From a virus, in IMG/VR virus record IMGVR_UViG_3300036851_000173, positions 1 through 36,155 of that record: 36,155 bases of DNA. One strand, given 5' to 3'. Positions 8,283 to 29,355 of the stretch are shown here, piece by piece; position 1 is the first letter of the stretch, and the number at the start of each line of letters is the position of its first letter. The notes beneath the pieces were generated by a model. It had not been told where the DNA came from. It did not search any database and worked only from the letters and a program-made list of their open reading frames with translations. Both the position numbers and the translations under genes were made by a program.

Positions 8283-8289
8283 CCCCCCC
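8283..8289 (+). other. C7 homopolymer at a probable frame break
   Basis: Seven cytosines follow ATGA at 8279-8282. Read as six, the ATG at 8279 would open MTPRCSKKLCVFDG in the frame of the downstream zinc-binding gene. Read as seven, that ATG runs into another frame. The ATG has the ATGA overlap typical of this operon. The feature may be a sequencing error, a slippage-regulated start or a true mutation. Confidence 0.5.
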
Positions 8290-8309
8290 GGTGCTCCAAG
8301 AAGCTCTGC

Positions 8310-9682: not shown

Positions 9683-9912
9683 CCGACAAGCCCAACGCCC
9701 GCTTCCGGGTCACGCCCGAGTTCACCCGACAGGTCGCGGCCGGCATGCGCGCGGCGAAGGTGGTGCCGGGCCACGTGCTCCTGGAGGGCGGTCCGCTGGC
9801 CGACTGGCTCGTCAAGGATGGCGCGCCGGCGCTGGACCCCGGGTGGTCCGAGGAGGGGCAGTACGTCCGAGAGGGCGATCGAGCGACATGGCGACCCGTC
9901 ACGTCGTCCTGA
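9679..9912 (+). CDS. hypothetical protein
   Basis: The 77-residue product starts at GTG 9679, overlapping the previous stop. It begins MTDKPNARFRVTPEFTRQVA and continues with KVVPGHVLLEGGPLADWLVK and an acidic, Trp-rich end (DPGWSEEGQYVREGDRATWR). The pattern resembles a small beta-rich domain. No motif or family is recognised. It lies between the PP-loop enzyme and a glycosyltransferase, so it may be an accessory of either one, but that is inference from position only. Confidence 0.6.
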   Translation: MTDKPNARFRVTPEFTRQVAAGMRAAKVVPGHVLLEGGPLADWLVKDGAPALDPGWSEEGQYVREGDRATWRPVTSS

Positions 9913-10637
9913 CCCGTTCGGCCTATGGGCCCGACTGGAGCTTCGGCGCGAACCTGGCCAGGCTCAAGGTGACGGAGGGGATCACGGCCGTCACGATGGC
10001 CAGGCAGACCGCCCCGCCGGACACCTGGCATTGGATCATCCTCCTGGACGCGCGGGACCCGCTGATCGAGCGGCGCATGGCGGTCTACCAGGCCGCGGCG
10101 CTCTCGCCCGGCTTCATCTTCTGGCAGCCTCCCGAGGAGGCGATCGCGCCGGCGCCCTGGGACCCGCGCGCTGACCCTGGGCGACTGGAGGGTCTCGCCG
10201 CGGCCGCGTACACCGCGCCCTGGGCCCGGGCGGTCGGGCCCCGCGACGAGCCGCTCCTCCAGACCCGCCTCGATGACGACGACGGCTTCGCTCCGGATGC
10301 CCTCGAGCGGATCGCGCGCGCCGGCGCCCGCCTGACCGAGCGGACGATCCTCATGCTGCCCATCGGGTACCGGACGTGGCGCGGCCAGGCCGAGCGGGTC
10401 GTGCACCTCAAGAACGCCTGGCAGACGTTGTTCACGCCGGCCGGCGACGAGCTGGGGGTCTACGACTACGGGCACACTCACGCGGCCGAGGTGGCGCCGG
10501 TGGTCATGGTCGACAAGGACCCGGGCTGGCTCTGGGTGAGGCACGGCCAGACGATCTCAGGCACACGGACAGCGGCCGGAACGATCACGCCGGCCATACG
10601 TGCCATGTTCCCGATCGACTGGACTCTGGCCCGTTGA
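9888..10637 (+). CDS. rhamnosyltransferase-like glycosyltransferase (GT-A fold)
   Basis: The 249-residue product has a Rossmann-like start (HVVLTRSAYGPDWSFGANLA), the core strand TWHWIILLDARDPL (about 47-59) and an acidic metal site TRLDDDDGF at 126-134. The last of these is the signature I associate with the putative rhamnosyltransferase family (PF11316). Such enzymes move a nucleotide-activated sugar to a carbohydrate or protein acceptor in the cytoplasm. ATG 9888 was chosen over the earlier frame start because it lacks the shadow-like extension. The next gene is a NodB deacetylase, so the two could build and trim one sugar. Confidence 0.75.
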   Translation: MATRHVVLTRSAYGPDWSFGANLARLKVTEGITAVTMARQTAPPDTWHWIILLDARDPLIERRMAVYQAAALSPGFIFWQPPEEAIAPAPWDPRADPGRLEGLAAAAYTAPWARAVGPRDEPLLQTRLDDDDGFAPDALERIARAGARLTERTILMLPIGYRTWRGQAERVVHLKNAWQTLFTPAGDELGVYDYGHTHAAEVAPVVMVDKDPGWLWVRHGQTISGTRTAAGTITPAIRAMFPIDWTLAR

Positions 10638-16703: not shown

Positions 16704-16912
16704 TGCACCGGCCGAACAAGAAGCAGCACGCCACGGCGCCGTCCTACGTCCGGGAGCGCCGGCACCGCCACGCGAAGATCGAGCGAGCCGAGCGCCTGGA
16801 GGCGCGCCTGGCCAGGGCCCGGGCGAAGCGCGCCGGCGTGATCTGCCTCCCGGGCCCGATGTCGCCCTGGCGCGAGGACGGCTCCGAGGCCGTGGCCCTC
16901 TTTGGTACCTGA
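16703..16912 (+). CDS. basic hypothetical protein
   Basis: The 69-residue product begins MHRPNKKQHATAPSYVRERR at ATG 16703, eight bases after a GGAG site (a GTG one codon earlier is the alternative). It is highly basic with a long helix (HAKIERAERLEARLARARAK) and a short end (LPGPMSPWREDGSE). It may bind DNA or RNA. Its last 11 nt overlap the terminase large subunit start. No family is recognised. Confidence 0.6.
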   Translation: MHRPNKKQHATAPSYVRERRHRHAKIERAERLEARLARARAKRAGVICLPGPMSPWREDGSEAVALFGT

Positions 16913-18437
16913 CACCCTCAGCGGTGGCCCGCACTTCGCTGACTTCTGCCAGCACTACATCCGGCAAACGAAGGGCCGGTGGGCTGGCCGACCGCTCATC
17001 CTGGAGGGCTGGGAGCGCGAGTTCTGGTGGGAGGCCCTGGAGCTCGACCCCACGACGCGCCTCCGTGTCTACCGCGAGGTGGGTCTGGGCATCCCGACGA
17101 AGAACGGCAAGTCCACTCAGGCCGCGGCCGGCGCTCACTACGGCCTGGTCGCGGACGGGGAGGCCGAGCCGGAGGTCTACCTAGGCGCCGCGACGCAGCG
17201 CCAGGCCAGCTCGATCATCCTCAAGCAAGCCCGGTCGATGGGCCTCCGGTCGCCGGCCCTGGCGAGGCTGGTCCAGGTCCAGGCTCACTCGATCTCGTGC
17301 GCCAGGAACGGCGGGATCATGCGCGCGGTCGCGGCGGACGGACCCCTCCAGCACGGCCTGAACCCGTCCTGGAACGTGCTCGATGAGATCCACGCCCACA
17401 AGGACGACGGCCTCTACACCGCGCTCACGAAGTCAGGCGCGGCCCGGGAGCAGATGCTGACGCATTGGATCACCACGGCCGGCCCGGAGGGCGAGACCCT
17501 CCTGTCGAGCCTCTACGGCCAGATGATCGCCGGCACGGGTGAGCTGGAGCGCCGCGGGGACTCGTTGATGATCTACCGCGACAAGCCCAACGGCATCCTG
17601 ATCTACTGGTACGGCGCGCCCAAGAGCGCGGACCCGGACGACCCGAAGGTGTGGCTGGCCACGAACCCGGCATCCTGGCTCCAGGACGGGACCTGGCTCC
17701 GCCAGCAGCACGGCAGCATGGTCGCTCGAGGCGCGCTCCTCGACTGGCGTATCTACCACCTCAACCAGTTCTGGGGCAGCCTCACGAGCTGGCTCCCCGA
17801 CCGCGCCTTCCAGGAGTGCGCGGCGCCGACCGTCAAGCTCGCGGATGACCGGCCCATCGGGGTCGGCGTGTTCCAGGTGCCGGACAGCTCCGCGGCGGCG
17901 GTGGCGATCGCGCAGCGCCAGGAAACCCGCCAGGGCGAGCGGGTCATCCTCCGGCTCAAGCACTTCGACGCCGAGCGGGCCACCGGCCGGTTCAGCCGCC
18001 GCGCCGTCCGTGACTACCTGATCGAGCTGCGCGCGAAGTACCCGAAGCCGGCTACCGTGGACGACAAGGGCTTCCCGATCGGCGGGCCGGCATATGCCTT
18101 CGAACGCTGGCAGTTCGAGGAGACCGCCCAGGAGCTGGAGGCGTTCGGGCTCAACATGGTCGACTTCCCCCAGACCGGGAACGCGATGGGCCCGGCGTCG
18201 ACTCAGGCGTACCAGCTCATCACGACCCGCAAGCTCCTCCACGCCGGCGACGAGCAGCTCGTCCAGCAGATGGAGGCGAGCCAGGCAACGCTCACCGACA
18301 GGGGCCTCCGGGTGGTGCCGTCCCGCGAGGAGCCCTACAACCTGGGCGCGATTGCGTCCATCATGGCGACCGCCATGGCGCTACTCCCGGCACCGAAGGT
18401 CTACGACAAGAAGCCGCGCGCCGGCCTAGCGTTCTGA
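16902..18437 (+). CDS. terminase large subunit
   Basis: The 511-residue product packs DNA into the prohead. It has the ATPase P-loop GIPTKNGKST (about 63-72), the Walker B-like segment NVLDEIHAH (about 158-166) and DPTTRLRVYREVG upstream. A C-terminal nuclease-like half follows (VGVFQVPDSSAAAVAIAQ, about 322-339, then the helical region to AIASIMATAMALLP). The pattern matches the Terminase_1 family. The TTG start at 16902 is the first possible start and overlaps the previous stop. It is preceded by the small subunit and followed by the portal, the usual packaging order. Confidence 0.9.
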   Translation: MVPDTLSGGPHFADFCQHYIRQTKGRWAGRPLILEGWEREFWWEALELDPTTRLRVYREVGLGIPTKNGKSTQAAAGAHYGLVADGEAEPEVYLGAATQRQASSIILKQARSMGLRSPALARLVQVQAHSISCARNGGIMRAVAADGPLQHGLNPSWNVLDEIHAHKDDGLYTALTKSGAAREQMLTHWITTAGPEGETLLSSLYGQMIAGTGELERRGDSLMIYRDKPNGILIYWYGAPKSADPDDPKVWLATNPASWLQDGTWLRQQHGSMVARGALLDWRIYHLNQFWGSLTSWLPDRAFQECAAPTVKLADDRPIGVGVFQVPDSSAAAVAIAQRQETRQGERVILRLKHFDAERATGRFSRRAVRDYLIELRAKYPKPATVDDKGFPIGGPAYAFERWQFEETAQELEAFGLNMVDFPQTGNAMGPASTQAYQLITTRKLLHAGDEQLVQQMEASQATLTDRGLRVVPSREEPYNLGAIASIMATAMALLPAPKVYDKKPRAGLAF

Positions 18438-18447
18438 GGAGGGACCC

Positions 18448-20028
18448 GTGCCGCCGATCGACCTGTTCAACGCCGAACCCCAGACCCCCGCCTGGTGGCT
18501 CCGTCGCCTCCTGGCCCGCCTCGAGCAGGACGTTCCTGACATGCGCCGCTGGGAGCGGTACTACGACGGCGACCAGCCCCTCGACTTCTTCGACGCCCAG
18601 GTGCGCGAGAAGTTCTCCGGCCGGTTCCGGCGCTTCACCGCGAACTACGTGGCCCTCGTGGTCGACAGCTTCGCGGAGCGGCTCAAGGTCACGGGGTTCC
18701 GGTTCAAGGACAGCGCGGCCGACGACGATCTCTGGGACATCTGGCAGGCGAACGATCTCGACGGCGGATCCGCTCAGGCCCACACCGACGCGCTCGTCAA
18801 GCGCCGCGCCTACGCCCTGATCGAGCCGCCGGCCGGGGACGCCCCGCCCAGGATCACGATGGAGAACGCGCTCAACGCCTTCGTCGAGACGGACCCCCGC
18901 GATCGCCGGAAGCGCCTGGCCGGCATCAAGCGGTACATCGACGGGGACGGCCGGCTGGTCGCCTACCTCTACCTGCCCGACACGATCTACCGCTTCCGCT
19001 CCGGGTCGGTCTGGCCCGAGAGCTGGACGCCCTGGGACCCGGACGGCGTGAACGCGGACGCGGCGACGTTCGGCATCGCCGGCGGCTTCGAGCTCTGGCC
19101 CCAGAACGGGGACGACGGCACGTTCCGGAACCCCATCGGCGTCGTGCCGCTGGTCCCGATCCTGAACCGGCCGAGGATCGGCAGCGCGGAGGGACGCTCC
19201 GAGGTCCACCCGATCACGAGCAACCAGGATCTCATCAACTACTACCGAGCCATGAGCGTCGTCGCGGCCCGGTACCTGGCGATCCCCCAGCGGTGGGTCA
19301 AGAACCTGGACGTGGAGGTCGACCCGGCCACCGGCCAGCCCCGCCCGCCGTTCAAGGGAGGGATCGCGGACCTGTGGGTCGTCGAGCCGATGGCAGCGGA
19401 CGATCCGCGCGCCTCGATCGACGCGGCGCAGACGGAGTTCGGCCAGTTCCCCGCGGCGGACCTGTCGAGCTACGACACCCTCTCGTCGAAGGAGATCATC
19501 GGCCTGGCCAGCGTCGCCGGCCTGCCCTACTACTACCTCCTGGACACCGGCGTCAACGCGGTCGCGGCCCCGTCCGGGGAGAGCATCAAGGCCAGCGAGG
19601 CGCGCCTGACCAAGAAGGTCGACCACATGGAGACCTACTTCGGGGAGGGCTGGGAGGAGACGATGCGCGTCGCCCTCCGCGCCATGGGCGACGAGCGGTG
19701 GAAGCTCCGGACGGCCGAGACCCTCTGGGCCCAGGTGGAGACGCAGAACGAGGCGGTCCGGGCGGACGCGGTGACGAAGATCAAGGCCGCGGGCCTCATG
19801 GACGACCGGATGGCGCTCGAGGCGCTGGGCTACTCGCCCCAGGCGATCAAGCGGTTCGTGGCGGATAAGGCCAAGCGCGAGGAGGAGGCCAAGAAGGAGG
19901 CGGCGGACGCCCTTGCCAACCAGCCGCCGGCCGGTCCGGGCGGTCCCCTGAACGGCGCTGGAGCGCCTCCTGCGCGACCGTCCGCGCCGGCGCCCCGCGC
20001 GAACGGCTCGCCAACGGCGGTCGCATAG
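18448..20028 (+). CDS. portal protein, SPP1/gp6 type
   Basis: The 526-residue product starts at GTG 18448 after GAGGAGGGACCC. It follows the standard portal layout: an N-terminal WWLRRLLARLEQDVPDMRRW (15-34), YYDGDQPLDFFDAQVREKF (38-56), a beta-rich wing region, and a crown helix region (LTKKVDHMETYFGEGWEETM). A disordered Ala/Pro-rich C-terminus follows (AGPGGPLNGAGAPPARPS). Twelve copies form the ring for DNA entry. The C-terminal tail is unusually long and low in complexity. Confidence 0.9.
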   Translation: MPPIDLFNAEPQTPAWWLRRLLARLEQDVPDMRRWERYYDGDQPLDFFDAQVREKFSGRFRRFTANYVALVVDSFAERLKVTGFRFKDSAADDDLWDIWQANDLDGGSAQAHTDALVKRRAYALIEPPAGDAPPRITMENALNAFVETDPRDRRKRLAGIKRYIDGDGRLVAYLYLPDTIYRFRSGSVWPESWTPWDPDGVNADAATFGIAGGFELWPQNGDDGTFRNPIGVVPLVPILNRPRIGSAEGRSEVHPITSNQDLINYYRAMSVVAARYLAIPQRWVKNLDVEVDPATGQPRPPFKGGIADLWVVEPMAADDPRASIDAAQTEFGQFPAADLSSYDTLSSKEIIGLASVAGLPYYYLLDTGVNAVAAPSGESIKASEARLTKKVDHMETYFGEGWEETMRVALRAMGDERWKLRTAETLWAQVETQNEAVRADAVTKIKAAGLMDDRMALEALGYSPQAIKRFVADKAKREEEAKKEAADALANQPPAGPGGPLNGAGAPPARPSAPAPRANGSPTAVA

Positions 20029-20067: not shown

Positions 20068-20694
20068 ATGCCACCGGAAGATCAGGGCACGGGCGCACCT
20101 GCGACGGGCGCACCCGATGGCGCGAAGCCAGGCCCGGGGTCGGGATCAGGGACAGCTCCAGCGACAGGTACACCGCCGGCAGCTCCAGGGAGCGCATCGC
20201 CCGCGACGGGCGAGGAGCCGCTCGGGGATGGCGGCAAGGCAGCACTCGAGGCGGAACGGGCCTCCCGGCGCGATGCCGAGAAGCAGCTCCGGGACGCCGG
20301 CTTCGTGAAGCAGGGCGACAAGTGGGTCAACACGGCCCAGATGTCCGAGATCGAGAAGCGCGAGGCGCGGATCAAGGAGCTGGAGAACGAGCAGGCCGGC
20401 GCATCGGCCAGAGAGAGGGAGCGGAACCTCCGAGTCGCGGCGATCGAGTCCGCGACGACGCTCAAGTTCCGGAACCCGTCCCTGGCCTGGCGGCTCCTCG
20501 ATCCGGCCGAGGTCAAGTACGAGGACGACGGGACGCCGAAGAACGTCGAGTCGCTCCTCAAGAAGATCGCTGAGGCCGAGCCCTACCTGGTCAGCGCCAG
20601 CGGGTCCGACTTCGGTGGCGGCAACCGAGGCAAGACGCCGGGACAGGCACCTTCGATGGACGAGCTGCTCAGGGCTGCGGCCCGCGGCGGCTGA
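20068..20694 (+). CDS. capsid scaffolding protein
   Basis: The 208-residue product begins MPPEDQGTGAPATGAPDG at ATG 20068, after GAGGAGGTAGC. An Ala/Pro/Gly-rich N-terminal part precedes a long charged coiled-coil (LEAERASRRDAEKQLRDAGF, about 62-81; then IEKREARIKELENEQAG). The C-terminus has a separate helical segment (SMDELLRAAARGG). Coiled-coil proteins placed between portal and capsid genes are scaffolds that guide shell assembly and then leave. A separate protease was not found nearby, so scaffold removal without cleavage is likely. Confidence 0.8.
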   Translation: MPPEDQGTGAPATGAPDGAKPGPGSGSGTAPATGTPPAAPGSASPATGEEPLGDGGKAALEAERASRRDAEKQLRDAGFVKQGDKWVNTAQMSEIEKREARIKELENEQAGASARERERNLRVAAIESATTLKFRNPSLAWRLLDPAEVKYEDDGTPKNVESLLKKIAEAEPYLVSASGSDFGGGNRGKTPGQAPSMDELLRAAARGG

Positions 20695-20752: not shown

Positions 20753-21739
20753 GTGGGAGAGTTCATTAGCCGCGCGGACGCGCTCTCGCTGATCCGAGAG
20801 CAGAACGCGACGGAGATCTGGCAGGCGGCGGTCCAGTCGTCTGCGGCCCTGCGGAGCTTCCGCCGGGTCAACATGGGCAAGAAGATCAGCAACTACCCGA
20901 CGATCGGCTCGATCCCCGAGGCCAGCTTCGTCTCGGGTGAGGACGCGGACGACGCGAACAGCCGCAAGCCCGTCACTTCGATGAAGTGGGGCAACCGGAA
21001 GCTCGTGGCCGAGGAGATCGCCGGCATCGTCGTGATCCCGGAGAACGTCATCCTCGACGCCGAGAGCGAGTTCTCGCTCTGGGGCGAGGTCCGGCCCCGG
21101 ATCGCGGAGGCGGTCGGGCGCACCCTCGACGGCGCCGTGTTCTTCGGCGTCAACGCCCCGTCGACCTGGCCGGCCGGTCTCGTGCCGACGTCGATCGCCG
21201 TGGGCAACGTCGTCACCGAGGGGACCACGATCCCCGAGGGCGCCGGCGCCCAGAACGACCTGGCAGCGGACGTCTCGGCCACCTTCGGCGTGGTCGAGGA
21301 CGACGGCTACGACCCCCGCGCGGCCTACGGCCGGCGGTCGCTCGCCCGGCGTCTCCGCGGTCTCCGTGACGCGAACAACGCCCCGATCTACGTCCAGACG
21401 CTGGCCGAGGACGGGTCGCGGATCGCCACGATCGACCAGGCGACGTTCTACCCCGTGATGAACGGGTCCTGGGACAACAGCGAAGCGACCATGCTCTGCG
21501 GCGACCCGGACTACGCGATCCTGGGCATCCGGCAGGACATCGAGTACAAGTTCCTCGACCAGGCAGCCGTCACGATCGGTGGCGAGCTGGTCTCCCTGGC
21601 GGAGAACGACCTGCTCGGCCTCCGGTTCAAGATGCGCGTGGGCTTCCAGACCGCGGAGACCATGACCGCCGTCAACCCCCAGGCATCGGGCGAGGGACGG
21701 GCCTACCCGTTCGCCGTCCTCCAGCCGGCCGGCAGCTAA
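20753..21739 (+). CDS. major capsid protein, HK97 fold
   Basis: The 328-residue product forms the shell. Its N-terminal arm (MGEFISRADALSLIREQ) leads into SFRRVNMGKKISNYPTIGSI, the capsid-type start of the E-loop and P-domain. LVAEEIAGIVVIPENVILDA (P-domain spine), LDGAVFFGVNAPSTWPAG (A-domain) and TMLCGDPDYAILGI follow. The size and pattern match the Phage_capsid family without an N-terminal delta domain, consistent with a separate scaffold gene. The GTG start follows GGAGGAACACC. The flanking inverted repeats are described separately. Confidence 0.85.
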   Translation: MGEFISRADALSLIREQNATEIWQAAVQSSAALRSFRRVNMGKKISNYPTIGSIPEASFVSGEDADDANSRKPVTSMKWGNRKLVAEEIAGIVVIPENVILDAESEFSLWGEVRPRIAEAVGRTLDGAVFFGVNAPSTWPAGLVPTSIAVGNVVTEGTTIPEGAGAQNDLAADVSATFGVVEDDGYDPRAAYGRRSLARRLRGLRDANNAPIYVQTLAEDGSRIATIDQATFYPVMNGSWDNSEATMLCGDPDYAILGIRQDIEYKFLDQAAVTIGGELVSLAENDLLGLRFKMRVGFQTAETMTAVNPQASGEGRAYPFAVLQPAGS

Positions 21740-21754
21740 CCCCTTCCCGGGCCA

Positions 21755-21790
21755 GCGCGAGGCGGGAGCCCGACCACTCCCGCCTCGCGC
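21755..21790 (+). terminator. perfect 14-bp hairpin downstream of the capsid gene
   Basis: GCGCGAGGCGGGAG (21755-21768) and CTCCCGCCTCGCGC (21777-21790) are exact inverted arms around an 8-nt loop, 15 bases after the capsid stop codon. There is no T-tract, so a typical rho-independent terminator is not shown. It could be a pause site, a partial terminator or a 3'-end stabiliser that favours the abundant capsid mRNA over downstream genes. Confidence 0.5.
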
Positions 21791-21817
21791 CCCTGATCCA
21801 CCGGAGGAGGTGCTGCC

Positions 21818-22327
21818 GTGTCCACGGTCTCGATCGTCACGCCCGAGGAGGTCGACGCGCTGATCGCGCATGGGCTTCCGGAGGAGGATCTCCTCGTTCT
21901 CATCGCCCGCGAGGAGGACCGCCTGGCGATGCGCCTGGGCACGCCCCTCACCGGGTCCGTCGAGCTGACGCTCCGGCCAGGCCGGACGTTCGATCCCCTT
22001 CTCCTGCCGCGCATGCCCGTCCCGGACAGCGTGACCGTCTCCGATGACGATGGCGCGGTCGACGTCGATGTCGCCGGCGCGGTCGTCACCCGCCGGACCG
22101 GCTTCTGGTCCACCCCGACCACCGTGGCCTTCGAGCTCGGGGACGTCTCCGAGATCAAGGGCGCGATCATCGACCTGATCCGGCTGACCCTGACCGCCAG
22201 CCCGTACCTCCAGGAGTCCGCCGAGGGCCACTCCTCCACGCGCTCCGGCACCGTTGAGCGCAACCGGGCCCAGATCATCGCCCAGCTCAACCCCCATCGC
22301 CGGCGCTCCGTGTCGGTGCCGATGTGA
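21818..22327 (+). CDS. head-tail connector protein (gp6-like)
   Basis: The 169-residue product begins MSTVSIVTPEEVDALIAHGL at GTG 21818 after GGAGGAGG. It has the connector layout: a helical N-terminal part (PEEDLLVLIAREEDRLAMRL, 21-40), a beta section (GSVELTLRPGRTFDPLLLPR) and a second helical part (EIKGAIIDLIRLTLTASPYL). These proteins form the ring under the portal that accepts the tail. The family call is by layout and genome position, which is fairly secure. Confidence 0.7.
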   Translation: MSTVSIVTPEEVDALIAHGLPEEDLLVLIAREEDRLAMRLGTPLTGSVELTLRPGRTFDPLLLPRMPVPDSVTVSDDDGAVDVDVAGAVVTRRTGFWSTPTTVAFELGDVSEIKGAIIDLIRLTLTASPYLQESAEGHSSTRSGTVERNRAQIIAQLNPHRRRSVSVPM

Positions 22328-22776
22328 CCACGAGCCGGGTCGCGGTCATCGACGCCGTGCGCGGGATCATCCCCCTCGCGGAGGGCATGACCGCGGACGA
22401 GACGTGCGCCGAGCCGGCCCGCGTTCAGCCCGGGCGCCTGTACGCCTGGCCGCGCCGGTTCGCTCCCCAGAAGCTGGAGGAGGATCGCGGCCGCTGGGAC
22501 GAGGCCGATCTCCGGATCAGGATGGTCTGGACCGTGCCGGCGAAGGGCGAGCCGCGAGCGCCGAACCGCGATCGCCAGATCAGCGAGCAGCTCGACGCGG
22601 TGGTCTCGACGATCCACGCGAAGGTCCAGGCCCACCGTCGAGACACGCTCTGGTGGGACCTGTACGTCGAGCAGGTGATCTACGACGCCATCCGGAGCGA
22701 CGTGGCCCGAGGCGTCGCGGTCGACCTGGTGGCCAGGCTCAACGAGCCCTTCGATGCGGCGGGGAGCGGCTCGTGA
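22324..22776 (+). CDS. probable tail terminator / neck protein
   Basis: The 150-residue product starts at GTG 22324 (GTGA). A helical N-terminus (VAVIDAVRGIIPLAEGMTAD) is followed by a central strand set (DLRIRMVWTVPAKGEPRAP) and a C-terminal helix-rich stretch (ISEQLDAVVSTIHAKVQA). Its size and position after the connector fit a neck or tail terminator protein, which closes the tail tube. No specific family was recognised. It is followed at once by the glycan enzymes, so the neck genes are interrupted by that cassette. Confidence 0.6.
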   Translation: MTTSRVAVIDAVRGIIPLAEGMTADETCAEPARVQPGRLYAWPRRFAPQKLEEDRGRWDEADLRIRMVWTVPAKGEPRAPNRDRQISEQLDAVVSTIHAKVQAHRRDTLWWDLYVEQVIYDAIRSDVARGVAVDLVARLNEPFDAAGSGS

Positions 22777-23780
22777 CGCCGATCGACGTCCTGGCCGGCG
22801 AGTGGCACTTCGCGGAGCACCTCGCGCCCGTCTACCTGGCGCTGCCGGAGGAGCGCCGTGGGCGGTTCATGCACCGCGGGAACCGCGACATGATGGGCCA
22901 GATCAGGACCCGGATGGGCCGGCACGGCATCAAGTCGACGCTCTCCAGCGAGAACAACCCCGTCCTGGTGGCGAGCTGGGGCGACTTCCGGCGGGCCCAG
23001 CGCGAGAACCGAACGCGCATCGCGCTCATGGAGCACGGCGCCGGCCAGAGCTACCACGGCGACGCCCGGGCGATCGCCGCGAACTCCTCGAGCTACGCCG
23101 GCGGGCCCAACCGCTACGCGGACCTGTTCCTGCACCCTGGCGACGATCCGGCGGGCCGCGATCGAGCGCGCTACCCGAAGGCCCGCGTCGAGGTCATCGG
23201 CTCGCCCTTCCTGGACATCATGCCCAGGCACGAGCCGGAGCCGGAGCCGGTCGTCGCCGTGACCTTCCACTTCAACTGCCAGGTCGTCGCGGAGACGCGG
23301 CCGGCGCTGCCGCACTTCCGGGCCGCGGTCGCGGAGCTGGCGAAGCACGTCAAGGTCATCGGCCACGGGCACCCGCGCATCCTGGAGCAGCTCGTCCCCT
23401 GGTATCAGCGCATGGGCATCGAGGTCGTGGGCTCCTTCGATGAGGTGGCGCGGCGAGCGAACGTCCTGGTGGCCGACAACACGAGCGTCCTGTTCGCGTT
23501 CGCGGCGAGTGGCCGGCCCGTCGTGGTCCTGAACCCGCCCTGGTATCGCCGGCACGTCAACCATGGCCTCCGGTTCTGGGATGCCGCGGACGTCGGCGTG
23601 AACGTGGCCAGGCCGGGCGATCTCGTGGCCGCGGTACATGAGGCGCTGGAGGACAACGCGGCCCGTCAGCGGGCCCGTGAGGCGGCCGTGAGCCTCGTCT
23701 ACGCGCATCGCACCGGCGCCGCGGCCAGGGCCGCGGAGGTGCTCCTCGATTGGACGGCCGACATGGCGGTGGCCGCGTGA
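22773..23780 (+). CDS. CDP-glycerol glycerophosphotransferase-like transferase (GT-B fold)
   Basis: The 335-residue product starts at GTG 22773 (GTGA). It shows the two-domain GT-B layout: IALMEHGAGQSYHG (83-96, the nucleotide-facing loop of CDP-glycerol glycerophosphotransferases), the linker VVAVTFHFNCQVVAE, and GHGHPRILEQL. ANVLVADNTSVLFAFAASGR then matches the signature of the same family (D-x-S-S-x-x-F-x-F). Family members add glycerol-phosphate or related groups to teichoic acid or glycans, but many GT-B enzymes share this fold, so the donor is unknown. It starts the three-gene glycan cassette. Confidence 0.75.
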   Translation: MTPIDVLAGEWHFAEHLAPVYLALPEERRGRFMHRGNRDMMGQIRTRMGRHGIKSTLSSENNPVLVASWGDFRRAQRENRTRIALMEHGAGQSYHGDARAIAANSSSYAGGPNRYADLFLHPGDDPAGRDRARYPKARVEVIGSPFLDIMPRHEPEPEPVVAVTFHFNCQVVAETRPALPHFRAAVAELAKHVKVIGHGHPRILEQLVPWYQRMGIEVVGSFDEVARRANVLVADNTSVLFAFAASGRPVVVLNPPWYRRHVNHGLRFWDAADVGVNVARPGDLVAAVHEALEDNAARQRAREAAVSLVYAHRTGAAARAAEVLLDWTADMAVAA

Positions 23781-24445
23781 CGCCGGCGCTCGTCCCGTGG
23801 CGCCCCGGGGATCCGCACCGCGAGCGGAGCTGGGCCCTGACCCGTCGCTCCTGGGAGCGCCATGGCTTCCGGATCGTCACGGGCGACACCCCCGGGCCCT
23901 TCTCACGCGCCGGCGCCCGGAACGCTGCCGCGGAAGCTGCCGGCCCCTGGGCGGTGGCCGTGTTCGTGGACGCTGACACGATCGTCCGTGACGCCGGCCC
24001 CGTCCGCGAGGCCGTCGCGCTGGCCACGGAGACCGGCGGCGTCGTCGTGCCGCACGACCAGTACGTCGGGCTGTCCGCCGGCGGCACGCGGCTCGTCCTG
24101 GCCGGCCGCGAGGAAGGCTGGTCGATGGTCGCCAGGCGGAAGGAGAACAGCCCCCTCGGCGTCCTGGTGATCGCCCGACCGGCCTGGGAGACCCTGGGCG
24201 GGTTCGATGAGCGGTTCACGGGCTGGGGCGGCGAGGACGGCGCGTTCCTGCGAGCAGCTCGCACCCTCGTCGACGTCCAGCGGCTCCCGGGCGAGATCGT
24301 CCACCTCTGGCACCCGATCGCCGGCGACAAGCTGGCGAAGGTCAAGCGCCCGCCCGAGCTGGCCTTCCGGTACGGCGCCGCGGAGGGCGACCCGGTGGCC
24401 ATGCTCGCCATCCTCGCGGAGCGTCGCGGGGAGGAGGCCGCGTGA
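23777..24445 (+). CDS. GT-A glycosyltransferase
   Basis: The 222-residue product from GTG 23777 has FSRAGARNAAAEAAG (42-56) and AVFVDADTIV (61-70), with the D-x-D metal site at 65-67. FDERFTGWGGEDGAFLRAAR (143-162) is the typical acceptor-site motif of galactosyltransferase-like GT-A enzymes. It would transfer a sugar from a nucleotide donor with inversion or retention unknown. GTGA overlaps on both sides tie it to its neighbours. The start lies at the stop of the GT-B gene. Confidence 0.85.
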   Translation: MTPALVPWRPGDPHRERSWALTRRSWERHGFRIVTGDTPGPFSRAGARNAAAEAAGPWAVAVFVDADTIVRDAGPVREAVALATETGGVVVPHDQYVGLSAGGTRLVLAGREEGWSMVARRKENSPLGVLVIARPAWETLGGFDERFTGWGGEDGAFLRAARTLVDVQRLPGEIVHLWHPIAGDKLAKVKRPPELAFRYGAAEGDPVAMLAILAERRGEEAA

Positions 24446-25152
24446 GGACGTACTGGTACAACCGCGTGAGCAACTTCGGGGACGCGATGGCGCCGCTCCT
24501 CATGGAGCGCCTGGGCATCCCGGCCGAGTGGGCGCCGCCGGCCCGGGCCGAGATCGTCACGGCCGGCTCGATCCTGTCGCAGCTCCCGCACCACTACCGG
24601 GGGATCGTCCTGGGCTCAGGGCTCATCGCGGCCGATCGTGGGGCGAGTCTGGCCCGGGCCCGGGTCCTGGCCGTCCGGGGCGCGCTCACGCGCGATCGCC
24701 TGGGGCTTCCTCGAGGTACGTTCCTCGCGGACCCGGGCATCCTGGCGCCGTTCCTCATGCCGGTCGGGGCGCCGGAGCGCGCCGGCGTCGTCGTGGCGCC
24801 GCACTACGTCGACCAGGACCTTCGGGCCCGCTACCCGGACGGCTGGCTCCTGGACGTGACCGCCCACCCGGTGGACGTCCTGGCCGACCTGAACGGGGCG
24901 GACCTGGTGATAACCAGCTCCCTCCACGTCGCCATCGCCGCGGACGCGCTGGGCATCCTGCACGTCGTGGAGCCTCACCCGAAGGTGATCGGCGGGCTGT
25001 TCAAGTTCGAGGACTACGCTTCGGCGTTCGGGATGGGCTTCGAACCTGGCATCCCGCGGCTCACCCCGCGAGGCATCATGGAGGCCCGTCAGGACGAGCT
25101 GCGCGACTACTATCTGTCGCTCGTGCCGACCAACAGGAGGGCCATCGCGTGA
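24442..25152 (+). CDS. polysaccharide pyruvyl transferase
   Basis: The 236-residue product starts at GTG 24442 (GTGA). Family landmarks (PF04230) are NFGDAMAPLL (11-20), AVRGALTRDRLGLP (77-90), DPGILAPF (97-104) and DLVITSSLHVAIAADALGI (154-172). These enzymes add a pyruvate ketal, from phosphoenolpyruvate, to a terminal sugar, as on capsular or secondary cell-wall polymers. Here it follows two glycosyltransferases inside the structural operon, so its likely substrate is the sugar those enzymes add. No signal peptide, so it acts in the cytoplasm. Confidence 0.85.
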   Translation: MRTYWYNRVSNFGDAMAPLLMERLGIPAEWAPPARAEIVTAGSILSQLPHHYRGIVLGSGLIAADRGASLARARVLAVRGALTRDRLGLPRGTFLADPGILAPFLMPVGAPERAGVVVAPHYVDQDLRARYPDGWLLDVTAHPVDVLADLNGADLVITSSLHVAIAADALGILHVVEPHPKVIGGLFKFEDYASAFGMGFEPGIPRLTPRGIMEARQDELRDYYLSLVPTNRRAIA

Positions 25153-25487
25153 TCGAGTTCCGGAGCGAGCATCGGTCGCTGGCGAGGGATCGCCAGCCGT
25201 TCCAGTTCGTCGACGGCAGGATCGTCGTGGACGAGGAGGGCGCCGCGAAGCTCCGGCGGCTCGCCAACCGCAAGCCGTACCTCGGCATCGTCGAGATCGG
25301 GCCGGTCAAGCCGGCGAAGAAGGTCAAGGAGGCCAAGGCGTCGAGCTCGACGCCCGCGCCGGCACCGGCACCCGAGCCGGAGCCGTTCCTGGAGCCCGGG
25401 CCCGCCCCGGTGGAGCCGGCCATCCCGGTAGACGACACCGGCACGGGCGCGGGCCCGGCCTCGAGCGACGACCAGACCAACGGGTAG
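25149..25487 (+). CDS. small tail-region protein with Pro/Ala-rich tail
   Basis: The 112-residue product begins MIEFRSEHRSLARDRQPFQF at GTG 25149. The first 55 residues contain FVDGRIVVDEEGAAKLRRLA and a beta hairpin-like end. The rest is low-complexity (APAPAPEPEPFLEPGPAPVE). Short proteins with this FRS...FVDG start and a disordered tail commonly sit just before the major tail protein in actinobacterial siphoviruses, but no biochemical role is known. It is coupled by GTGA to the pyruvyl transferase gene. Confidence 0.6.
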   Translation: MIEFRSEHRSLARDRQPFQFVDGRIVVDEEGAAKLRRLANRKPYLGIVEIGPVKPAKKVKEAKASSSTPAPAPAPEPEPFLEPGPAPVEPAIPVDDTGTGAGPASSDDQTNG

Positions 25488-25499
25488 AGGAGGATCACG

Positions 25500-25940
25500 G
25501 TGGCACTCACGAAGTTCCTGGCGCGGGATCTCGTCATCGAGATCCTGGACCCCGCATCGGGCGGGGACTACACGGAGATCAAGGGTCTGGAGACCCTCTC
25601 CCACAGCCCGTCGTCCACGAAGGCGGACACGACCGACTTCGAAGGCGGCGGACGCAAGAGCCACCTGGTGGCGGAGCGCGGCGACGAGTGGACCCTCTCC
25701 GGCTTCAAGCTGGAGGACGTGGCCACCGGCGAGGGCGACCCTGGCCAGGTGCTCGTCGAGGAGCTGGGCGAGAAGATCAGCTTCGAAAGCCTCGGGCAGT
25801 TCCGGATCACGAGCCCCGGCGGCAACCAGATCGAGTTCCAGGCGTCCGCGGAGGTCACGAAGCCCGGCGGCGGGCACAACGACCCGGCGGCGTGGGGGGC
25901 CAAGCTGGAGGTCTCAGGCGCGATCACGCGAGGTAGCTGA
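25500..25940 (+). CDS. major tail tube protein
   Basis: The 146-residue product begins MALTKFLARDLVIEILDPAS at GTG 25500 after GAGGAGGATCAC. It alternates strands with a core (ETLSHSPSSTKADTTDFEGG, then EWTLSGFKLEDVATGEGDPG) and ends LEVSGAITRGS. The pattern (T-x-x-T-D-F-x-x-G-G near a hairpin) resembles siphovirus tube proteins. The position, before the tail-assembly chaperones, agrees. Many copies stack into the tail tube. Confidence 0.75.
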   Translation: MALTKFLARDLVIEILDPASGGDYTEIKGLETLSHSPSSTKADTTDFEGGGRKSHLVAERGDEWTLSGFKLEDVATGEGDPGQVLVEELGEKISFESLGQFRITSPGGNQIEFQASAEVTKPGGGHNDPAAWGAKLEVSGAITRGS

Positions 25941-25942
25941 TC

Positions 25943-26284
25943 GTGCCGACGATCGACTTTGATGCCTTCCGGGCGGAGCGTTCGGCCGAGCCGATCGTCC
26001 TCCGCCTGGGAGGCGAGGACTACGAGCTTCCGCCGGCGCTGCCCGCTTCGATCGCGCTGGACCTGATCCGGCTGCGGAAGGAGAAGGGCGACACGGCGGA
26101 GGTTCCACCCGACGAGATCGAGCGGTTCGCACGGCTGATCCTCGGGGCGAAGGGTGAGGAGATCATCGGGAAGGTCTCCATCGACGAGCTGGGCACGCTG
26201 CTCGTCAGGCTCCTCGGGGTCTATTCACCCCCAAACCCGGCCAGCCCGGCGGAGACGAAGGAGAAGGAGCCAGCTTCTCCCTGA
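25943..26284 (+). CDS. tail assembly chaperone, short form
   Basis: The 113-residue product from GTG 25943 begins MPTIDFDAFRAERSAEPIVL. It contains VLRLGGEDYELPPALPASIA (19-38), a helical middle (LDLIRLRKEKGDTAEVPPDE) and IERFARLILGAKGEEIIGKV. This is the upstream, gpG-like chaperone that guides the tape measure before the tube forms. It has a slippery site at 26230-26236 near its end, where some ribosomes shift back one frame to make the long form. The TGA is at 26282-26284. Confidence 0.8.
   Translation: MPTIDFDAFRAERSAEPIVLRLGGEDYELPPALPASIALDLIRLRKEKGDTAEVPPDEIERFARLILGAKGEEIIGKVSIDELGTLLVRLLGVYSPPNPASPAETKEKEPASP
26230..26236 (+). promoter_or_regulatory. -1 ribosomal frameshift site CCCAAAC
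   Basis: In the chaperone frame the codons are CCC CCA AAC, giving the heptamer C-CCA-AAC, which fits X-XXY-YYZ. Both tRNAs can re-pair one base back on CCC and AAA. The frame entered is open for 126 more codons. Programmed -1 shifting between two tail chaperones is a conserved property of long-tailed phages. A downstream stimulatory structure was not identified by eye. Confidence 0.7.
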
Positions 26285-26616
26285 TCGAGAGCTGGGCCCT
26301 CATCGAAGCGGACTTCCTCCGGGAGTACCGCATCAATCTCGTCCGGGCGCTGGAGGGCATGTCGTGGCGACGGTTCATGGTCCTGGTTCGCGGGCTCTCA
26401 CCGAACGCGGCGACCGTGACGGCGCTGCGGATCGGGCACGTCTCGCGCGGCCGGAAGGTCGACGTGATGCGGACGCCGGAGGAGGCGCAGCGCGCCTTCG
26501 ATCGACTGTTCCCGCCCCGCCGGCGGAGGCGACCGAGTGACCGTCCGGATCACGCGGGTCGACTGGCATCCCGAGCGAGCGATCGCCGCGGTCGAGCGCG
26601 CGCGCCGGCAGGGTAA
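26236..26616 (+). CDS. tail assembly chaperone, frameshift extension (gpGT-like)
   Basis: This is the downstream part of the -1 frameshift product, joined to the first 98 residues of the short chaperone to give about 224 residues. It begins PGQPGGDEGEGASFSLIESW, then a helical domain (ALIEADFLREYRINLVRALE, about 18-37), MSWRRFMVLVRGLSPNAATV and EEAQRAFDRLFPPRRRRRP. It has no good start of its own near the junction. The last 80 nt overlap the next gene; this tail looks like shadow sequence and may not be natural. Confidence 0.65.
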   Translation, partial: PGQPGGDEGEGASFSLIESWALIEADFLREYRINLVRALEGMSWRRFMVLVRGLSPNAATVTALRIGHVSRGRKVDVMRTPEEAQRAFDRLFPPRRRRRPSDRPDHAGRLASRASDRRGRARAPAG

Positions 26617-26887
26617 TCGCCGGGCCGCGGAGCGGGTCCTCGATCGTGCGTCCGGCCTGGCGCCGCGACGGACCGGCTTCCTGGCCGGCAGCGGCGTCAT
26701 TGAGGATGACGGCGACGACGTGAGCGTGGGCTTCGGAGCCGAGTACGCGCCCGTGCTCCACGCTCACCCGGAGTGGCACTACCAGGGAGGCCGGGACGCC
26801 CGGTGGCTGGAGACGGCCCTCGAGCAGGAGGGCTCTGACGCGCTGGGCGCCTGGGCCGGCGAGATCAGGGCGGAGATCGGCCTGTGA
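26537..26887 (+). CDS. HK97-gp10-like protein (tail completion / minor virion protein)
   Basis: The 116-residue product from GTG 26537 begins MTVRITRVDWHPERAIAAVE. The C-terminal half (LAPRRTGFLAGSGVIEDDGD, VSVGFGAEYAPVLHAHPEWH) is the layout I associate with HK97 gp10-type proteins, which close the head-tail joint. Such genes normally lie upstream of the tail tube gene; here it lies after the chaperones and before the tape measure. The alternative is an unrelated tail protein that shares the motif. Confidence 0.6.
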   Translation: MTVRITRVDWHPERAIAAVERARRQGNRRAAERVLDRASGLAPRRTGFLAGSGVIEDDGDDVSVGFGAEYAPVLHAHPEWHYQGGRDARWLETALEQEGSDALGAWAGEIRAEIGL

Positions 26888-29355
26888 GCGTGAACGTCGG
26901 CACCCTGTTCGCCACCCTCCGCCTGGACACGGGCCCGTTCAACTCGTCCCTGGGCGGGGTCGGCGGGACGCTGCGCGCCGCCGGTGCTGGGATGACCCAG
27001 GCCGGCGGCACCATCACGACCGGGCTGACCCTGCCGATCCTGGGCGCCGGCGCGGCGATCGTCTCGACGTCCGTCGACTTCGACACGTCCATGCGCCGGA
27101 TCATCGCCCTGACCAACGTCACGGAGGGCGAGATCGGCGGCATCCGGACCGCGATCCTCGCCCTGTCCGGCGAGACCGGCCGGGCACCCCAGGAGCTGGC
27201 GGACGCCTTCTACTTCCTGGCCAGCGCCGGCTTCACCGGGAAGGAGGCCCTGGACGTCCTGGACGCCACCGCGCGGGCCTCCGCGTCCGGCCTGGGCAGC
27301 ACGGCGGACATCGCCCAGGTAACGGGTCTGGCGATCAACGCCTGGGGCAAGGAGAACCTCACCGCGGCCGATGCGGTCGACCAGCTCATCGCCGCGGTCC
27401 GCGAGGGCACCGCCGAGCCGGCCGAGTTCGCTCGCGCCCTGGGCGGCGTGGCCGGCTCCGCGGCCCAGGTCGGCGCCAAGTTCGACGAAGTGACCGCGGC
27501 CATGGCAGCCATGACCATCAAGGGCATCGACGCGGACGCGGCGGCGGTCTCGCTCAACGCCGTGTTCACGACCCTGTTCAAGCCGACGTCGGAGGCCGAG
27601 AAGCAGCTCAAGGCCATGGGCCTGTCGGCCGAGGGGCTCCGGGCGTCGATCAAGGAGAAGGGCCTCCTGCCGACGCTCGATCTCCTCAAGGACAAGTTCG
27701 ATGGCAACGAGGAGGCGACGGCCGCGGTGTTCGGGAACGTCCGGGCCCTCCGCGGCATCTTCGCCCTGACCAACGGTGACGCGGCTCAGACGGCCGCGAT
27801 CTTTGAGAACGTGGCCAACGCCGGCGGCAGCCTCGAGGCGGCGTTCGCGGCGACTGAGGGCCCTGGACGCGAGCTCGACCGGGGCATGGCCGATCTCAAG
27901 GGAACCCTGATCGAGTTCGGGGAGACGGTCGTCCCCATCGTCATCGACATCCTGGGCCAGCTCCGCGACGTGCTCTCCGGGATCCGCACCTGGTGGGAGA
28001 GCCTCAGCGAAGGTGGCCAGAAGAACGTCGTCACGTTCGCGCTCCTGGCCGCGGCAGCCGGCCCGGTCCTCCTGATCCTGGGCGCGCTCGTGACCGCCAT
28101 CGGCGCGATCCTCTCCCCGATCGGCCTGGCGATCGCCGGCATCGCGGCCCTGGCCGCGGCCTTTGAGTCCGACTTCCTGGGGATCAAGACGGCCCTGTCG
28201 CCGGTCATCGAGGCGATCGGCTACATCGTCGACGTGTTCGCATCGGGGGACGACGTGGCCTCCGGCTTCGTCGAGACGATGGAGAACCTGGGCGAGAAGC
28301 TCGGGCCGCTGGGCCCGACGTTCAAGGCGTTCGCGGAGACCCTCGTGGCGATCGCGGACACGGTGGTCCCCGCCCTGATCGCCGGCTTCCAGAGCTTCGT
28401 CGACCAGGTGCTCCCGGTCCTCCAGGCCGCGTTCGACAGCTTCGTGACGAACGTCCTGCCCGTGCTCATCGAGGCGTTCGGGTTCATCACGGACACCGTG
28501 ATCCCGGCCTTCGCGGACGCCATCGGCTGGGTCACGACGAACATCCTCCCGCCCCTCATGTCGATCTTCCAGACGATCGCGGAGACGATCATCCCGATCC
28601 TGGCCGCGGCCCTGGACACGATCGTCGCCGTCGTGCGCGACAACTGGCCCACGATCAGCTCGATCGCGGAGCAGGTCGGCAACGCCATCAAGATCGCCAT
28701 GGACGTCATCGCCGCCGTCATCCAGGCGGTCGCGCCGGTGGTCCGCTGGCTGGCCGAGACGATCTTCCCGATCCTGGGAGCTGCCGCCGGCCTGCTCCTC
28801 AAGGTCATCGACGGCGCGTTCAAGGCGATCGGCGTCGTGTGGAACGCGCTGGTCTCCGCTGCCCAGAGCGCGATCAACGTCCTGACGGCTCTGTGGAACG
28901 GCTTTGCCGGCTTCTTCAAGACGATCTGGGACGGGATCGGGGCCGTGGCGAAGGGCGCGATCAACTTCCTCATCGGCATCGTCAACGGGATCATCGGCGC
29001 GGTGAACAGCATCCAGGTCCACATCGGGCGGATCGGCCTGGACACCCCCGCCGGCTTCATCGGCGTCGGGCCCTTCGATTGGAACGGCCTCCAGCTCCCG
29101 AAGCTCGGCTACCTGGCCGAGGGCACCGACTTCTGGCCGGGCGGCTGGGCGATGCTCGGGGAGCGCGGGCCCGAGCTGGCGTTCCTGCCTCGCGGGACGG
29201 CGGTGGCGAACGCCGATGACACCCAGAGCATCCTCCAGGGCGGAGGGAAGGAGCTGCACAATCACTACCACCTGACGGTCACGGGCAACCTCGAGGCCAA
29301 GGACGAGCCGAGCGTTCTCGGCACCCTCCAGCGACTCGCGGCGGTGACAGCGTGA
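26884..29355 (+). CDS. tail tape measure protein
   Basis: The 823-residue product begins MSVNVGTLFATLRLDTGPFN at GTG 26884. It has the TP901-type core (VDFDTSMRRIIALTNVTEGE, ALSGETGRAPQELADAFYFL), long hydrophobic segments (LLAAAAGPVLLILGALVTAI and following), repeated Ile/Val-rich helices, and the common end segment GERGPELAFLPRGTAVANAD. It sets tail length; by the usual 1.5 angstrom per residue the tail would be about 120 nm. The chaperones upstream cover it during assembly. This is the longest gene of the middle operon. Confidence 0.9.
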   Translation: MSVNVGTLFATLRLDTGPFNSSLGGVGGTLRAAGAGMTQAGGTITTGLTLPILGAGAAIVSTSVDFDTSMRRIIALTNVTEGEIGGIRTAILALSGETGRAPQELADAFYFLASAGFTGKEALDVLDATARASASGLGSTADIAQVTGLAINAWGKENLTAADAVDQLIAAVREGTAEPAEFARALGGVAGSAAQVGAKFDEVTAAMAAMTIKGIDADAAAVSLNAVFTTLFKPTSEAEKQLKAMGLSAEGLRASIKEKGLLPTLDLLKDKFDGNEEATAAVFGNVRALRGIFALTNGDAAQTAAIFENVANAGGSLEAAFAATEGPGRELDRGMADLKGTLIEFGETVVPIVIDILGQLRDVLSGIRTWWESLSEGGQKNVVTFALLAAAAGPVLLILGALVTAIGAILSPIGLAIAGIAALAAAFESDFLGIKTALSPVIEAIGYIVDVFASGDDVASGFVETMENLGEKLGPLGPTFKAFAETLVAIADTVVPALIAGFQSFVDQVLPVLQAAFDSFVTNVLPVLIEAFGFITDTVIPAFADAIGWVTTNILPPLMSIFQTIAETIIPILAAALDTIVAVVRDNWPTISSIAEQVGNAIKIAMDVIAAVIQAVAPVVRWLAETIFPILGAAAGLLLKVIDGAFKAIGVVWNALVSAAQSAINVLTALWNGFAGFFKTIWDGIGAVAKGAINFLIGIVNGIIGAVNSIQVHIGRIGLDTPAGFIGVGPFDWNGLQLPKLGYLAEGTDFWPGGWAMLGERGPELAFLPRGTAVANADDTQSILQGGGKELHNHYHLTVTGNLEAKDEPSVLGTLQRLAAVTA

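What the first reader, a model, noticed from the sequence alone, without database searches (positions are those of the whole stretch)
22773..25152. Glycan-pyruvylation cassette inside the virion structural operon
Three coupled genes, a CDP-glycerol-transferase-like GT-B enzyme, a GT-A glycosyltransferase and a polysaccharide pyruvyl transferase, lie between the neck genes and the tail tube, overlapping each other and the neck gene by 4 nt. All three carry intact family motifs. Virion glycosylation is known in some mycobacteriophages, but a pyruvyl transferase here implies a pyruvylated, negatively charged glycan on the particle or on DNA. The coupling suggests production timed with tail assembly.
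Basis: partly seen in the sequence, partly recalled or inferred. Interest (0 to 1): 0.8.

Follow-up and report, generated by a model that had tools for sequence, protein, structure and literature searches.

The report
Sugar-coating genes in phage assembly operon
An uncultivated tailed phage carries, in the middle of the genes that build its particle, enzymes that look intact for making a sugar chain and capping it with an acidic pyruvate group, and dozens of related uncultured phages carry reshuffled versions at the same place, so they probably decorate their particles with unusual charged glycans.

Summary
In a 36-kb IMG/VR virus contig, a GT-B enzyme (22773-23780), a GT-A galactosyltransferase-like enzyme (23777-24445) and a polysaccharide pyruvyltransferase (24442-25152) sit between neck-position genes and tail tube, joined by 4-nt GTGA overlaps. 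The run continues into a small protein (25149-25487); a fourth glycosyltransferase lies at 9888-10637. The pyruvyltransferase has every published family motif (NxGD, RxxxS/T, His; each 52/52 in relatives), and its model's best PDB matches are the proven pyruvyltransferases WbbZ and Pvg1p. The GT-B family has at least 211 relatives in IMG/VR, one in 50,697 phage records, none found in a pattern scan of 84,980 prokaryote species genomes, and no PHROG. In 83 nonredundant loci, terminase/portal genes were never downstream of it nor tape measure upstream. Its neighbours form a shuffled glycan island: galactosyl-, rhamnosyl- and GT2-type transferases, a phospho-alcohol-type cytidylyltransferase, FkbM methyltransferases, pyruvyltransferase. 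Best explanation: virion decoration with an anionic, pyruvate-capped glycan, possibly polyol-phosphate based. Acceptor, donors and chemistry are inferred; nothing was measured. The mycobacteriophage framing is unproven (host unknown, weak Actinomycetota hint). New variant of a known kind.

The parts
22773..23780 (+). GTB: GT-B fold transferase, Glyphos_transf-like (TagB/TagF superfamily), 335 aa; hallmark gene of the island
   Evidence: PF04464 6e-6, 48 of 56 relatives match PF04464; AF2 pLDDT 95.3; invariant H88/G89/G91, H166, H200/P201, D235/S238, H264/G265/R267/F268 in 56/56
23777..24445 (+). GTA: GT-A galactosyltransferase-like enzyme, 222 aa
   Evidence: PF02709 2.5e-8, phrog_1721 3.4e-28; DxD 90/90, ED 88-89/89, H179 88/88; 33-40% identity to mycobacteriophage/Gordonia phage glycosyltransferases
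24442..25152 (+). PVT: polysaccharide (ketal) pyruvyltransferase, 236 aa
   Evidence: PF04230 6.7e-8, 52/52 relatives match PF04230; NxGD, RxxxS/T, H162, K188 all 52/52; top PDB folds WbbZ 6x1l and Pvg1p 5ax7
25149..25487 (+). small protein (112 aa) with conserved N-terminus and Pro/Ala/Glu-rich tail, coupled to PVT by GTGA; relatives close the island in L006 and L034
   Evidence: function unknown
9888..10637 (+). fourth glycosyltransferase, Rhamno_transf family, distal to the cassette
   Evidence: PF11316 9.7e-9; same family recurs in 21 of 83 GTB loci; also upstream of TerL in close relative L251
21818..22776 (+). two coupled genes in neck position (21818-22327, 22324-22776) immediately upstream
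   Evidence: position between capsid and cassette; 4-nt overlaps; related genes at the same place in other loci; no Pfam/PHROG match
25500..25940 (+). tail tube protein, immediately downstream of the island
   Evidence: phrog_3884 2.8e-17
20753..21739 (+). major capsid protein (HK97 fold)
   Evidence: PF05065 4.9e-19, phrog_10 5.9e-35
16902..18437 (+). terminase large subunit, upstream boundary of the morphogenesis operon
   Evidence: PF03354, phrog_9
26884..29355 (+). tape measure protein, downstream boundary
   Evidence: position, length (823 aa) and recurrence

Best explanation
A glycan island in the structural operon that decorates the phage particle. Proposed steps: soluble cytoplasmic enzymes act during assembly; the GT-B enzyme starts or extends the chain on a structural protein (donor probably a CDP-polyol or a nucleotide sugar), the GT-A enzyme adds a galactose-like sugar, and the pyruvyltransferase caps it with a PEP-derived pyruvate ketal, giving an anionic glycan. 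The Rhamno_transf enzyme at 9888-10637 may add a further sugar. Shown: gene content, intact motifs, folds, fixed operon position, recurrence. Inferred: donors, acceptor, order of steps, presence of the glycan on the virion.
For: Same-strand position inside the morphogenesis operon: of 83 nonredundant GTB loci, 59 have a head gene upstream and 33 a tail gene downstream, and none has TerL/portal downstream or tape measure upstream. Coupling by GTGA overlaps to the neck-position gene. Other glycan genes share the locus in 59 of 82 GTB loci other than the window (families partly chosen there, so partly circular). Orders such as TagD-GT2a-GTA-GTB, GTB-TagD-GT2a-PVT-GTA and TagD-GT2a-PVT-GTA-GTB. 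None of GTB, GTA or PVT in 80 bacterial-genome loci with a related capsid. Pyruvyltransferase motif set complete (motifs from PMC10629545), best folds WbbZ/Pvg1p. No transmembrane segment obvious: highest 19-residue hydropathy means 0.8-1.8 in the four window enzymes, the 1.8 lying in a buried strand-helix region of the PVT model. Phage-made virion glycosylation is established for Che8, Corndog and Myrna (PMC12363180 citing Freeman 2023), and the GT-A here belongs to the phage galactosyltransferase family phrog_1721.
Against: No acceptor site, glycopeptide or mass shift known; no isolate exists. Glycan genes in jumbo phages have been read as host-surface modification (PMC7824862), and a phage-encoded WbbZ makes host O antigen (PMC10629545). 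Co-location in a structural operon does not prove the particle is the substrate. In the one annotated jumbo phage with a PVT-GTA pair (Tunturi_5) the pair lies outside the structural module. Of the relatives with the most similar capsids, L254 shows none of these genes, so the island is dispensable.
Confidence: 0.58

Rival explanations
1. The enzymes modify the host cell surface (wall polymer or capsule), hiding receptors to prevent superinfection or loss of progeny to debris.
For: Phage glycan genes often do this: a phage WbbYZ pair makes host O1 antigen (PMC10629545), and jumbo-phage polysaccharide clusters are so interpreted (PMC7824862). A TagD-like cytidylyltransferase and TagF-like GT-B fit wall teichoic acid chemistry.
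Against: Genes lie in the structural operon in every locus with markers, presumably expressed late, which is late for exclusion; no relative of the GT-B was found in bacterial genomes, so no sign of lysogenic conversion (pattern-limited scan); no membrane segments obvious in the four window enzymes; no flippase or polymerase noticed among recurrent neighbours.
Confidence: 0.22
2. The enzymes glycosylate modified bases in phage DNA.
For: Many phage glycosyltransferases do so (Pyle 2024, cited in PMC12619734); the contig has ParB-like and PAPS-reductase-like genes.
Against: No hydroxymethyltransferase or thymidylate-synthase-like gene among the window ORFs scanned (not every ORF was scanned and the contig may be incomplete); families resemble polysaccharide enzymes; genes stay with neck and tail genes.
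Confidence: 0.08
3. Ordinary cargo: independently acquired moron genes parked in a tolerant site of the operon without a joint function.
For: Order is shuffled and content varies; L254 with a similar capsid lacks them.
Against: The same partners recur, many coupled by short overlaps, GTB is found in at least 211 contigs and catalytic residues are invariant.
Confidence: 0.07
4. The GT-B gene is a nucleotide-sugar epimerase rather than a transferase (a rival for one part only, compatible with the main explanation).
For: Best PDB folds are non-hydrolysing UDP-GlcNAc 2-epimerases, TM about 0.66; 4 of 56 members match Epimerase_2.
Against: 48 of 56 match Glyphos_transf and it has D-N-S/T-S in place of the epimerase DSGGxQEE signature (signature from my own knowledge); epimerases also dominate fold hits of WbbZ as a shared-fold effect (PMC10629545).
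Confidence: 0.12

Closest known systems
Mycobacteriophage virion glycosylation (Che8 gp110, Corndog gp38, Myrna; Freeman et al. 2023, as summarised in PMC12363180)
   Same: Phage-encoded glycosyltransferases glycosylate capsid and tail tube; the GT-A here matches phrog_1721 and is 33-40% identical to many mycobacteriophage and Gordonia phage enzymes.
   Different: In the related phage looked at here (prophiGD91-2) the glycosyltransferases are not between neck and tail tube; no pyruvyltransferase, Glyphos_transf-like enzyme or cytidylyltransferase was mentioned in the sources I could read; glycan chemistry here is inferred.
WbbZ / Pvg1p / CsaB saccharide ketal-pyruvyltransferases (PF04230)
   Same: NxGD, RxxxS/T and His motifs and fold; PEP-dependent pyruvyl transfer expected.
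   Different: At 236 aa shorter than WbbZ (260 in 6x1l), Pvg1p (401) and CsaB (396); about 15% identity; acceptor unknown; encoded in a phage morphogenesis operon.
Phage-encoded WbbYZ (BK049963.1; PMC10629545)
   Same: Phage-encoded pyruvyltransferase with a glycosyltransferase partner, activity proven.
   Different: Makes O1 antigen, a host surface glycan; no GT-B-marked structural island described.
TagB/TagF/TarL teichoic acid transferases (PF04464) with TagD
   Same: GT-B family match and, in 10 of 83 related loci, a co-located TagD-like cytidylyltransferase.
   Different: GTB is a separate family seen only in viral contigs here, about 335 aa, soluble-looking; no TagD-like gene was found in the window.
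Large-phage PVT-GTA pair (Tunturiibacter phage Tunturi_5 gp300-gp301 and similar contigs)
   Same: Related pyruvyltransferase and GT-A genes as neighbours.
   Different: In Tunturi_5 outside the structural module, no GTB nearby, order PVT-GTA.

Membership tests
Saccharide ketal-pyruvyltransferase (PF04230) | Pfam profile above gathering cut-off | tested here: met
   33.2 vs 25.3 bits; 52/52 relatives match
Saccharide ketal-pyruvyltransferase (PF04230) | Published motifs NxGD, RxxxS/T, His | tested here: met
   N11/G13/D14, R79 with T/S83, H162, all 52/52 (motifs from PMC10629545)
Saccharide ketal-pyruvyltransferase (PF04230) | WbbZ/Pvg1p fold | tested here: met
   Top PDB matches 6x1l and 5ax7, probability 0.95-1.00 but modest TM 0.45-0.48 and E 3e-3 to 1e-2
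Saccharide ketal-pyruvyltransferase (PF04230) | PEP-dependent pyruvyl transfer | not testable with these tools
   needs an enzyme assay
CDP-glycerol glycerophosphotransferase (TagB/TagF, PF04464) | Pfam profile above cut-off | tested here: met
   25.8 vs 22.1 bits, over residues 187-319 only; 48/56 relatives match at E 0.01
CDP-glycerol glycerophosphotransferase (TagB/TagF, PF04464) | Closest fold is TagF/TarL | tested here: inconclusive
   UDP-GlcNAc 2-epimerases rank first; TarL and a TagF-like polymerase appear only at E 0.25-0.5 by sequence profile
CDP-glycerol glycerophosphotransferase (TagB/TagF, PF04464) | Supply of CDP-polyol by a TagD-type enzyme | tested here: inconclusive
   Present in 10 of 83 related loci, HxGH and RTxGxS(S/T) motif, best PDB relatives ethanolamine-phosphate and glycerol-3-phosphate cytidylyltransferases; not found in the window
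Phage galactosyltransferase phrog_1721 | Profile match and GT-A catalytic motifs DxD, ED, His | tested here: met
   3.4e-28; 90/90, 88-89/89, 88/88
Phage virion glycosylation system | Glycan demonstrated on structural proteins | not testable with these tools
   needs virion mass spectrometry
Phage virion glycosylation system | Phage-encoded glycosyltransferase of the type found in phages with glycosylated virions | tested here: inconclusive
   GT-A matches phrog_1721 and many mycobacteriophage enzymes, but I did not test it against Che8 gp110 or Corndog gp38 themselves

The most novel reading that the evidence does not exclude
A virus-specific GT-B family marks a modular virion-decoration system in uncultivated tailed phages that builds teichoic-acid-like, CDP-polyol-derived phosphoglycans, in some lineages capped with pyruvate, on neck or tail proteins, so that the particle surface mimics the anionic wall polymers of its host.
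Probability: 0.22. Interest if true: 0.85.

Novelty: new variant of a known kind. Interest (0 to 1): 0.62.

Why it matters
Virion glycosylation is documented in a few mycobacteriophages. Here a glycan pathway is built into the assembly operon of a broad set of uncultured phages, marked by an enzyme family that is almost absent from isolated phages, was not found in a scan of sequenced bacterial and archaeal genomes, and has no PHROG. If the glycan is on the particle, charge-bearing pyruvate ketals or polyol phosphates would give phages a host-like anionic coat, with consequences for adsorption, stability in the environment and immune recognition. The GT-B gene is also a usable marker for finding such phages in metagenomes.

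Tried and rejected
Close relatives of GTA by exact peptide patterns in IMG/VR: none, although HMM searches of fetched loci found many. Host assignment: no nucleotide match to phages, TerL about 30% to many isolates, capsid relatives scattered over many phyla with Subtercola best at 46%; left open. GT-B in bacterial genomes by pattern scan: none, which is limited to one peptide pattern. PDB sequence search with PVT: no true hit, settled by fold search. Relatives search by taxonomy is not possible for a virus record. Idea that GTB tail fusions in L015/L023/L026/L027 carry the 25149-25487 small protein: no significant similarity, dropped. The small Pro/Ala-rich protein as glycan acceptor: a low-complexity scan across loci gave mostly spurious frames, kept only as speculation. 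Promoters and terminators in the region: none found, scan uninformative for this base composition. Literature: no open-access paper found on pyruvylated virions or on a Glyphos_transf-like phage gene; Freeman 2023 itself was not readable here.
Full report
What the window is. The window is a virus record from IMG/VR, 36,155 bases, 67-74% G+C, with no nucleotide match among 50,697 phage records for 21000-27000. The right half holds a standard siphophage morphogenesis operon on the + strand: terminase large subunit 16902-18437, portal-like 18448-20028 (by position and recurrence), a gene at 20068-20694, HK97-type capsid 20753-21739, two genes in neck position 21818-22776, tail tube 25500-25940, tail chaperone 25943-26284, a neck/minor-head-like gene 26537-26887, tape measure 26884-29355, and tail proteins beyond. 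The reported cassette sits between the neck-position genes and the tail tube.

Check of the observation. The three ORFs are real and joined exactly as described. Pfam scores pass curated cut-offs for Glyphos_transf, Glyco_transf_7C and PS_pyruv_trans.

Pyruvyltransferase. A published survey of glycan pyruvyltransferases gives three conserved motifs: NxGD, RxxxS/T and a histidine (PMC10629545). In the window protein these are N11-F-G13-D14, R79-xxx-T83 and H162; in 52 aligned viral relatives each is present in 52 of 52, and K188 is also invariant. CsaB mutagenesis found an arginine, a histidine and a lysine critical to PEP binding (PMC10435577); I did not prove residue-by-residue equivalence. 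The AlphaFold2 model (pLDDT 95.6) matches WbbZ (6x1l) and Pvg1p (5ax7) as the top two distinct solved structures; both are proven pyruvyltransferases, although TM scores are modest (0.45-0.48) and E-values weak (3e-3 to 1e-2).

GT-A. It matches phrog_1721 (3e-28), annotated as galactosyl transferase, and is 33-40% identical to enzymes of many mycobacteriophages and Gordonia phages. DxD is present in 90/90 relatives, the GWGxED acidic pair in 88-89/89 and a conserved histidine in 88/88.

GT-B. The GT-B enzyme is the most unusual part. A pattern search found at least 211 relatives in IMG/VR, one in 50,697 phage records (Rctr41k), none in one representative genome for each of 84,980 bacterial and archaeal species (one peptide pattern only) and no PHROG for any of 56 members. 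48 of 56 members match Glyphos_transf. The model (pLDDT 95.3) is a GT-B fold; the nearest solved structures are UDP-GlcNAc 2-epimerases, which also appear as shared-fold hits for WbbZ (PMC10629545), so fold rank alone does not assign the reaction.

Context across relatives. I called ORFs in the fetched loci and labelled them with iterative profile searches seeded by window proteins. After removing GT-B sequences at least 90% identical, 83 loci remained: 59 have a head gene upstream, 33 a tail gene downstream, 25 both; terminase/portal is never downstream and tape measure never upstream. The gene is therefore a resident of the assembly operon. Clustering of neighbours and Pfam gave recurrent glycan families: GT-A (33 loci), Rhamno_transf (21), GT2-like a and b (12 and 10; the GT2a representative has no Pfam match and is called GT2 from its sequence), a TagD-like cytidylyltransferase (10), pyruvyltransferase (9), FkbM methyltransferase (7). 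Several loci show coupled runs in different order: TagD-GT2a-GTA-GTB (L064, L074, L081), GTB-TagD-GT2a-GTA (L049, L061), GTB-TagD-GT2a-PVT-GTA (L058), TagD-GT2a-PVT-GTA-GTB (L014/L145), GTB-PVT-GTA (L045), PVT-GTB (L068). The window's own fourth glycosyltransferase of the Rhamno_transf family lies at 9888-10637; a close relative, L251 (capsid 94% identical; its contig ends before the cassette), has it upstream of the terminase too.

Controls. Of 80 bacterial-genome loci chosen only by a related capsid, none has GTB, GTA, PVT, TagD-like, Rhamno_transf, GT2a or FkbM, and one has a GT2b-like gene. Of 37 further viral loci chosen only by capsid and with at least 5 kb downstream, 5 have GTB (L252 and L253 look like copies of one phage); among the closest capsids L252/L253 and L255 carry it and L254 does not. 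The enrichment statistics are partly circular because most families were picked from GTB neighbourhoods; the capsid-chosen sets and the orientation rule are the fair tests.

Donor hint. The TagD-like protein has HxGH and the C-terminal RTxGxS(S/T) signature. Its NCBIfam matches are split between heptose-phosphate adenylyltransferase and glycerol-3-phosphate cytidylyltransferase, all below equivalog cut-offs, but its best PDB relatives are ethanolamine-phosphate and glycerol-3-phosphate cytidylyltransferases. Together with a TagF-like GT-B this suggests a CDP-polyol donor in some lineages. No such gene was found in the window, so a host CDP-polyol, or another donor, would be needed. This is the weakest link.

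Mechanism and rivals. The most likely reading is assembly-time glycosylation of particle proteins, with GT-B and GT-A building a short chain and pyruvate capping it. Soluble-looking enzymes, residence in the structural operon and absence from the bacterial genomes searched argue against lysogenic conversion. Host-surface modification remains the main rival because a phage WbbZ is known to act there (PMC10629545) and jumbo-phage polysaccharide clusters are so interpreted (PMC7824862). DNA glycosylation is unlikely on the gene content scanned. No experiment bears on the acceptor.

Novelty. Phage virion glycosylation is known (Che8, Corndog, Myrna; PMC12363180 citing Freeman 2023, which I could not read directly). 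A pyruvyltransferase-bearing, Glyphos_transf-marked island inside the morphogenesis operon was not found in the literature searched here, which covers open-access papers only. I file it as a new variant of a known kind.

Noticed in passing
L030:3974-5712 (Tunturiibacter phage Tunturi_5 gp300-gp301) and about 40 IMG/VR loci such as L108-L144: A second, separate setting of the same pyruvyltransferase: next to a GT-A gene (order PVT-GTA, often overlapping), largely on long contigs; in Tunturi_5 the pair is outside the structural module and both genes are annotated 'galactosyl transferase', the first of which is PF04230-like.
   Followed up: partly
L148, L163-L168, L170: Another pyruvyltransferase group sits near a TagD/HldE-like nucleotidyltransferase; in L148 that protein carries a mannose-1-phosphate guanylyltransferase/isomerase-like C-terminal region.
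   Followed up: no
window 29802-34064: 1420-residue tail protein with BNR/sialidase-like Asp-box repeats near the C-terminus (PF13088 5e-12).
   Followed up: no
window 8279-9682: PAPS-reductase-like protein (PF01507, phrog_2302 1.7e-102) in the left arm, just upstream of the Rhamno_transf gene.
   Followed up: no
window 1299-2198 (-) and 11110-11640 (+): Two different ParB-like genes in one contig.
   Followed up: no
window 25149-25487; L006:10659-10991; L034:10371-10727: Small protein with conserved N-terminus (MxxFRSxHR...FVGGRLVV) and a disordered-looking tail that closes the glycan island in three phages; possible structural protein or acceptor.
   Followed up: partly
L251 (IMGVR_UViG_3300050507_000106): Near relative of the window phage (capsid 94% identical) whose contig ends just before the cassette.
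   Followed up: partly
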